NCBI GenBank assembly: GCA_017882745.1
Contig: JADGOX010000051.1
Coordinates: 1-36,787 of the forward strand
Direction of reading: 5' to 3'
From: Mycobacteriaceae bacterium
Lineage (GTDB): Bacteria; Actinomycetota; Actinomycetes; Mycobacteriales; Mycobacteriaceae
DNA length: 36,787 nt
Below the pieces are notes generated by a model that did no database searches, was not told the origin of the DNA, and saw only the letters and a list, made by a program, of their open reading frames with translations. The position numbers were made by a program, and so were the translations under genes. Below, piece by piece: positions 1,594 to 1,902 of the stretch; the stretch's first letter is position 1; every line of letters begins with the position of its first letter.

Positions 1594-1902
1594 ATGGCAG
1601 TGACCGTTTCCGTCCCCACCATCTTGCGTACGCACACAGATGGCCAGAAGAACGTCCAGGCGAGCGGCGGCACTCTCGCCGAGATGATCGACGACCTCGA
1701 CGCCAAGCACAACGGCATCAAGGACCGCCTGGTCAACGGCGGCAAGCTGCACCGTTTCGTCAACGTCTACGTCAACGACGAGGATGTCCGCTTTTCCGGC
1801 GGCATGGCCACCGAGCTGGGGGAGGGTGACGACGTCACCATCCTGCCCGCCGTCGCCGGCGGATCGGCGACATCGATCACAGTCGCCGGCGGCGCTGCGT
1901 AA
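1594..1902 (+). CDS. cysO: MoaD/ThiS-family sulfur carrier protein CysO, with C-terminal extension
   Basis: [19 protein letters not shown]...[40 protein letters not shown] is CysO-like; continues [12 protein letters not shown] before the stop; lies between mec and cysM. Confidence 0.93.

What the first reader, a model, noticed from the sequence alone, without database searches (positions are those of the whole stretch)
1840..1902. CysO has a 12-residue tail after its conserved Gly-Gly, with a second VAGG
The sequence reads ...[22 protein letters not shown]-stop. CysO-type carriers work through a thiocarboxylate on a C-terminal Gly-Gly, and from memory the M. tuberculosis protein ends at VAGG. 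Here neither GG is terminal, so maturation needs proteolysis. The JAMM peptidase gene mec lies immediately upstream. Comparable tails removed by JAMM proteases are known for QbsE/QbsD and HcyS/HcyD. The tail looks like an imperfect duplication of the AVAGG end, so there are two possible cleavage sites. Mec may therefore be a maturase as well as the CysO-cysteine hydrolase.
Basis: partly seen in the sequence, partly recalled or inferred. Interest (0 to 1): 0.62.

Follow-up and report, generated by a model that had tools for sequence, protein, structure and literature searches.

The report
CysO sulfur carrier with removable cap
A small protein that carries sulfur for making cysteine is encoded here with 12 extra amino acids beyond its working end; such removable caps of every length turn out to be common on this protein across actinobacteria, and the neighbouring protease Mec very probably trims them off.

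Summary
CysO (1594-1902) reads [22 protein letters not shown]-stop, with intact JAMM protease Mec upstream and CysM 2 nt downstream. It is not a frameshift: against the only congener held (CysO ends GG-AR), the sole coding indel is one in-frame 30-nt insertion, and its 25-nt core occurs once in the genome. The particular tail is not conserved, but capping is common. ThiS in the same genome ends at GG. Streptomyces genetics (PMC6006322) already show that a JAMM gene beside a capped carrier (GG-MV) is needed. So Mec as maturase is well supported, though not proven here, and is a known kind of biology. In the window only 11 nt are duplicated, so 'duplication of the AVAGG end' is half right. The conserved first GG is the expected mature end; a second functional site is unsupported.

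The parts
1060..1515 (+). mec: Prok-JAB/JAMM metallopeptidase, 151 aa; predicted to release cysteine from CysO-Cys and to remove the CysO cap
   Evidence: Pfam Prok-JAB E=5e-30; JAMM motif HSH-x7-S-x2-D at codons 1294-1335; only Prok-JAB hit in the genome
1594..1863 (+). cysO core: beta-grasp sulfur carrier, residues 1-90, ending in the conserved VAGG
   Evidence: Pfam ThiS E=1.2e-15 ending at residue 90; PDB 3dwg/4n6e homologues end here; VAGG invariant in 265 of 265 loci
1864..1899 (+). 12-codon cap [12 protein letters not shown] after the functional Gly-Gly, predicted to be cleaved off
   Evidence: direct reading; absent from the congener, which has AR; pLDDT below 50 over residues 89-102
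1852..1862 (+). first copy of the 11-nt direct repeat GTCGCCGGCGG (VAGG codons of the mature end)
1882..1892 (+). second copy of GTCGCCGGCGG (second VAGG, in the cap)
1900..1902 (+). cysO stop codon TAA, 2 nt before the cysM start
1905..2867 (+). cysM: PLP-dependent cysteine synthase of the CysO pathway
   Evidence: Pfam PALP E=5.7e-68; cysKM subfamily model

Best explanation
The window encodes the actinobacterial CysO cysteine pathway (mec-cysO-cysM, with MoeZR elsewhere in the genome). CysO is made as a precursor whose 12-residue cap hides the reactive Gly90. The adjacent JAMM peptidase Mec, whose known job is to cut the amide bond after that glycine in CysO-cysteine, also cuts after Gly90 of the precursor and releases [12 protein letters not shown]. 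MoeZR can then adenylate and thiocarboxylate Gly90, and CysM can use it. Because Mec tolerates whatever follows the GG, the cap is under little constraint and changes quickly in length and sequence; this is one of many such caps. Shown here: the cap, the intact reading frame, Mec with its motif, the census and the paralogue contrast. Inferred: that Mec is the protease and Gly90 the mature end.
For: A mec gene lies within the fetched stretch in 261 of 265. Of the four without, L276 has a Prok-JAB gene about 3.5 kb away, and L028, L215 and L314 lie on contigs cut near cysO. All 278 scored Mec ORFs keep the JAMM pattern. ThiS in this genome ends exactly at GG; MoeZR is present. PMC6006322: Streptomyces PtmS2 (GG-MV) lies next to JAMM gene ptmS1, and deleting ptmS1 abolishes thiocarboxylate products. 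PMC8832034: D. radiodurans JAMM cuts MoaD-MoaE to leave a C-terminal Gly.
Against: No direct proteolysis data for this or any CysO with a long cap. Mec is also beside uncapped CysO (needed for cysteine release), so adjacency does not discriminate. Some paralogues carry a one-residue cap (7 Cys, 1 Ser) with no mec beside them, so either a distant JAMM acts in trans or another peptidase can do it. The census is phylogenetically uneven, so the Fisher P value overstates independence.
Confidence: 0.82

Rival explanations
1. The cap is removed by a peptidase other than Mec, for instance a carboxypeptidase or Clp-type trimming that stops at the folded beta-grasp domain.
For: Single-residue caps (Cys, Ser) occur on paralogues with no mec beside them; the cap is predicted disordered and so accessible.
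Confidence: 0.12
2. The second VAGG is itself used: Mec removes only AA and the mature CysO ends at Gly100, giving a carrier with a longer flexible arm.
Against: Only the first VAGG is invariant, and the solved CysO relatives end there (3dwg, 4n6e). The arm would be 10 residues longer than in the congener, which shares 90% of Mec+CysM. Most caps have no second GG.
Confidence: 0.06
3. The second GG codons serve at the DNA/RNA level, keeping a Shine-Dalgarno-like GGxGG at a fixed distance upstream of cysM after the insertion.
For: The last GG lies 10-25 nt before the cysM start in five of six such loci.
Against: GGAGG is not significantly enriched at GG codons near the cysM start (17/130 against 8/100, P=0.29); the window has GGCGGC, not GGAGG; spacing ranges from -1 to 25 nt.
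Confidence: 0.06
4. The cap is an unprocessed lesion and CysO is inactive in this strain, or the insertion is an assembly error.
For: Draft assembly of 358 contigs; only one other genome of the genus is held, and it lacks the insert.
Against: Frame kept, third-position-biased divergence through mec, cysO and cysM, single-copy insert, MoeZR present; in-frame caps are common in relatives.
Confidence: 0.06

Closest known systems
CysO/Mec/CysM/MoeZR cysteine pathway of Mycobacterium tuberculosis
   Same: Same gene order mec-cysO-cysM, same VAGG end of the fold, MoeZR in the genome
   Different: M. tuberculosis CysO ends at VAGG (3dwg, 93 aa) with no cap
PtmS2/PtmS1 of Streptomyces platensis (PMC6006322)
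   Same: A sulfur carrier capped after GG (MV) encoded beside a JAMM protease gene; capped carriers need that protease gene in vivo
   Different: Two-residue cap without a second GG; sulfur goes to thioplatensimycin/thioplatencin
QbsE/QbsD (Pseudomonas, thioquinolobactin) and HcyS/HcyD (Wolinella)
   Same: GG hidden by a few residues that a JAMM protease removes (QbsD is cited for this in PMC6006322; HcyS/HcyD from general knowledge)
   Different: Different carriers and shorter caps, no CysM partner; not compared by sequence here
MoaD-MoaE fusion cut by DRJAMM (Deinococcus radiodurans; PMC8832034) and MoaX of M. tuberculosis (PMC4326299)
   Same: A carrier whose GG is followed by more polypeptide and which must be cut to be active; DRJAMM leaves a C-terminal Gly
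   Different: The following polypeptide is a whole MoaE subunit; the protease that cuts MoaX was not identified in the passages read

Membership tests
CysO (mycobacterial-type sulfur carrier for cysteine) | ThiS/MoaD beta-grasp domain close to solved CysO | tested here: met
   ThiS E=1.2e-15; 3dwg_C E=7.9e-36, 4n6e_B E=1e-37
CysO (mycobacterial-type sulfur carrier for cysteine) | Encoded with cysM and mec | tested here: met
   mec 1060-1515, cysM 1905-2867
CysO (mycobacterial-type sulfur carrier for cysteine) | Gly-Gly at the end of the fold | tested here: met
   G89-G90, invariant in 265 of 265 loci
CysO (mycobacterial-type sulfur carrier for cysteine) | C-terminal thiocarboxylate formed by MoeZR | not testable with these tools
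   MoeZR gene present; the chemistry needs an experiment
JAMM-processed capped sulfur carrier (QbsE/PtmS2 type) | Extra residues after the functional GG in the primary translation product | tested here: met
   12 residues, in frame, no frameshift
JAMM-processed capped sulfur carrier (QbsE/PtmS2 type) | Adjacent JAMM protease with an intact catalytic motif | tested here: met
   Prok-JAB E=5e-30, HSH-x7-S-x2-D
JAMM-processed capped sulfur carrier (QbsE/PtmS2 type) | Protease removes the cap to expose GG | not testable with these tools
   needs intact-protein MS with and without Mec
Tandem duplication of the CysO C-terminus | Tail unit recognisable as a copy of the preceding 30 nt | tested here: inconclusive
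   11 nt exact, but 5/18 in the rest of the unit

The most novel reading that the evidence does not exclude
The second VAGG found in CysO caps of at least three separate families is a selected element, for example a second Mec cleavage or docking motif that makes maturation stepwise and limits how fast CysO becomes active, rather than a by-product of local DNA duplication.
Probability: 0.12. Interest if true: 0.6.

Novelty: new variant of a known kind. Interest (0 to 1): 0.38.

Why it matters
M. tuberculosis CysO, the textbook case, ends at GG, so Mec is described only as the enzyme that frees cysteine. The census suggests that in most sampled actinobacteria CysO is a precursor and that Mec has an earlier, obligatory job. 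It provides a natural library of caps from 1 to 42 residues on one conserved carrier, which makes JAMM specificity beyond the GG directly measurable. If the recurrent second VAGG proves functional, it would point to regulated maturation of a sulfur carrier.

Tried and rejected
Frameshift near 1870: rejected. Misassembly from elsewhere in the genome: no second copy of the insert. Simple tandem duplication of the 30-nt unit in this lineage: 5/18 match against about 12/18 expected from third-position divergence, P=4e-4. Dispersed repeat element as the source of second-VAGG caps: a 22-mer from the related-looking G487 sequence was found in 2 of 399 genomes only; the G487 match is an unrelated tandem repeat, not cysO. 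Homology of the window linker to the other VAGG caps: not significant (P about 0.3-0.7), although the L012 cap does resemble the L185 cap. Shine-Dalgarno role of the GG codons: P=0.29. Sasaki 2014 and Godert 2007 are not held in the library. Two Pfam calls failed on wrong coordinates and were repeated in part.

Full report
What is there. The window is one whole contig of a draft genome (G000, 2.9 Mb, 358 contigs, 91.8% complete). Its start carries clpS, a DUF2017 gene, mec, cysO, cysM and a rhomboid gene, the order I recall from M. tuberculosis. cysO spans 1594-1902 and reads ...[22 protein letters not shown]-stop. The first GG (residues 89-90) aligns with the very last residues of the two solved CysO relatives, 3dwg_C (93 aa) and 4n6e_B (90 aa). 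AlphaFold2 gives a confident beta-grasp fold and pLDDT below 50 for residues 89-102.

Not an artefact. Only one other genome of the genus is held (G001). Its CysO is 88% identical and ends GG-AR. Aligning mec-cysO-cysM shows one net 30-nt in-frame insertion at the cysO end and no other indel inside the coding regions until the cysM stop, with differences concentrated at third codon positions (cysO 6, 5 and 22 of about 90 sites). The stretch after the insert (GGCGGCGC, then a stop, then cysM ATG after 2 nt) keeps its layout in both. The insert core occurs once in the genome. Reads could not be checked.

The repeat. GTCGCCGGCGG occurs exactly at 1852-1862 and 1882-1892. The 18 nt before the second copy match the corresponding upstream 18 nt at 5/18, whereas neutral divergence since the split from G001 (about 31% at third positions) would leave about 12/18 (P=4e-4). 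So either only the 11 nt were copied, or the duplication is much older than the genus and was lost in G001.

The wider picture. I read the CysO end in 265 distinct loci with an adjacent cysM, from Mycobacteriales and other Actinomycetes. All 265 have VAGG at the end of the fold. After it, 112 stop at once; 31 have one residue, 82 have two (mostly AR, MR, SR), and 40 have three to 42. Fourteen are longer than the window's 12. Closely related genomes differ freely: in genus g27 the caps are SR, SV, RF, SQV, AGAV, DSSATVAGG, DNRATVAGGAS, DNSATVAGGATSIRG and DSRAQVAGGDSRAQVAGGSGA. A Mec+CysM tree of 71 taxa needs at least 23 changes between 0, 1-2 and 3+ residues. In family f15 one cap start (AFGFAAAAAI) is shared across a genus, so not all caps drift freely.

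Link to Mec. mec lies within the fetched stretch in 261 of 265 loci, and all 278 Mec ORFs scored in the first census keep the JAMM pattern. Of the four without, L276 has a Prok-JAB gene about 3.5 kb away, and the other three lie on contigs cut near cysO. As a control I took 41 related carriers not next to cysM or mec. That one, L029, lies beside an ORF with a weak Prok-JAB match. The remaining eight capped paralogues have a single Cys or Ser. In the window's own genome ThiS ends exactly at GG, and a MoeZR with the start of a rhodanese domain is present.

Mechanism. From established biochemistry, MoeZR adenylates the C-terminal glycine and CysM uses the resulting thiocarboxylate; Mec hydrolyses the CysO-cysteine adduct (PMC3227635). 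A capped CysO cannot be adenylated at Gly90. Cutting the precursor after Gly90 is the same bond type that Mec cuts in CysO-Cys. Genetics in Streptomyces support this: PtmS2 (GG-MV) and PtmS3 (GG-C) are capped, and deleting the JAMM gene ptmS1 abolishes thiocarboxylate products while uncapped carriers do not compensate (PMC6006322). A bacterial JAMM also cuts MoaD-MoaE to leave a C-terminal Gly (PMC8832034). I therefore expect Mec to release [12 protein letters not shown]. The proteolysis itself is inferred, not shown.

The second VAGG. A tandem TAGG pair occurs in a fourth genus. Local DNA duplication explains most of this: L172 and L180 are plain tandem repeats, and L019 and L185 repeat 12-14 nt exactly. 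A Shine-Dalgarno role is not supported. A dispersed repeat is not supported. Selection on the motif is not excluded.

Verdict. What I did not find described in the papers I could search is how widespread and variable CysO caps are; that negative covers only the open-access library, so novelty of the census is not established.

Noticed in passing
   Followed up: partly
L172 and L180: Caps made of perfect tandem peptide repeats ending in AGG: DSRAQVAGG x2 and AAQKGTAGG x2.
   Followed up: partly
L306, around 1500 (G487): A 27-nt tandem repeat with a GTCGCC-GGA-GGCGAC hairpin, unrelated to cysO, resembles the cysO cap DNA of G074 (20 of 22 nt); not dispersed in 399 genomes. Unexplained.
   Followed up: partly
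L029, 602-1794: A ThiS-like protein with a 9-residue cap (GG-SRPDPVWES) next to an ORF with a weak Prok-JAB match, in a genome with no Prok-JAB over the cut-off; possibly another carrier-protease pair.
   Followed up: partly
L286, L350, L352, L355, L358, L361, L362: A second CysO-like carrier group (VS-IPAVAGG) often ends GG-Cys, like PtmS3, with no mec beside it.
   Followed up: no
L012: Cap DSSSTVGV in a genome of the window's family resembles at DNA level the DSSATVAGG cap of another family (L185; shuffle P below 2e-4); shared ancestry or transfer not resolved.
   Followed up: partly
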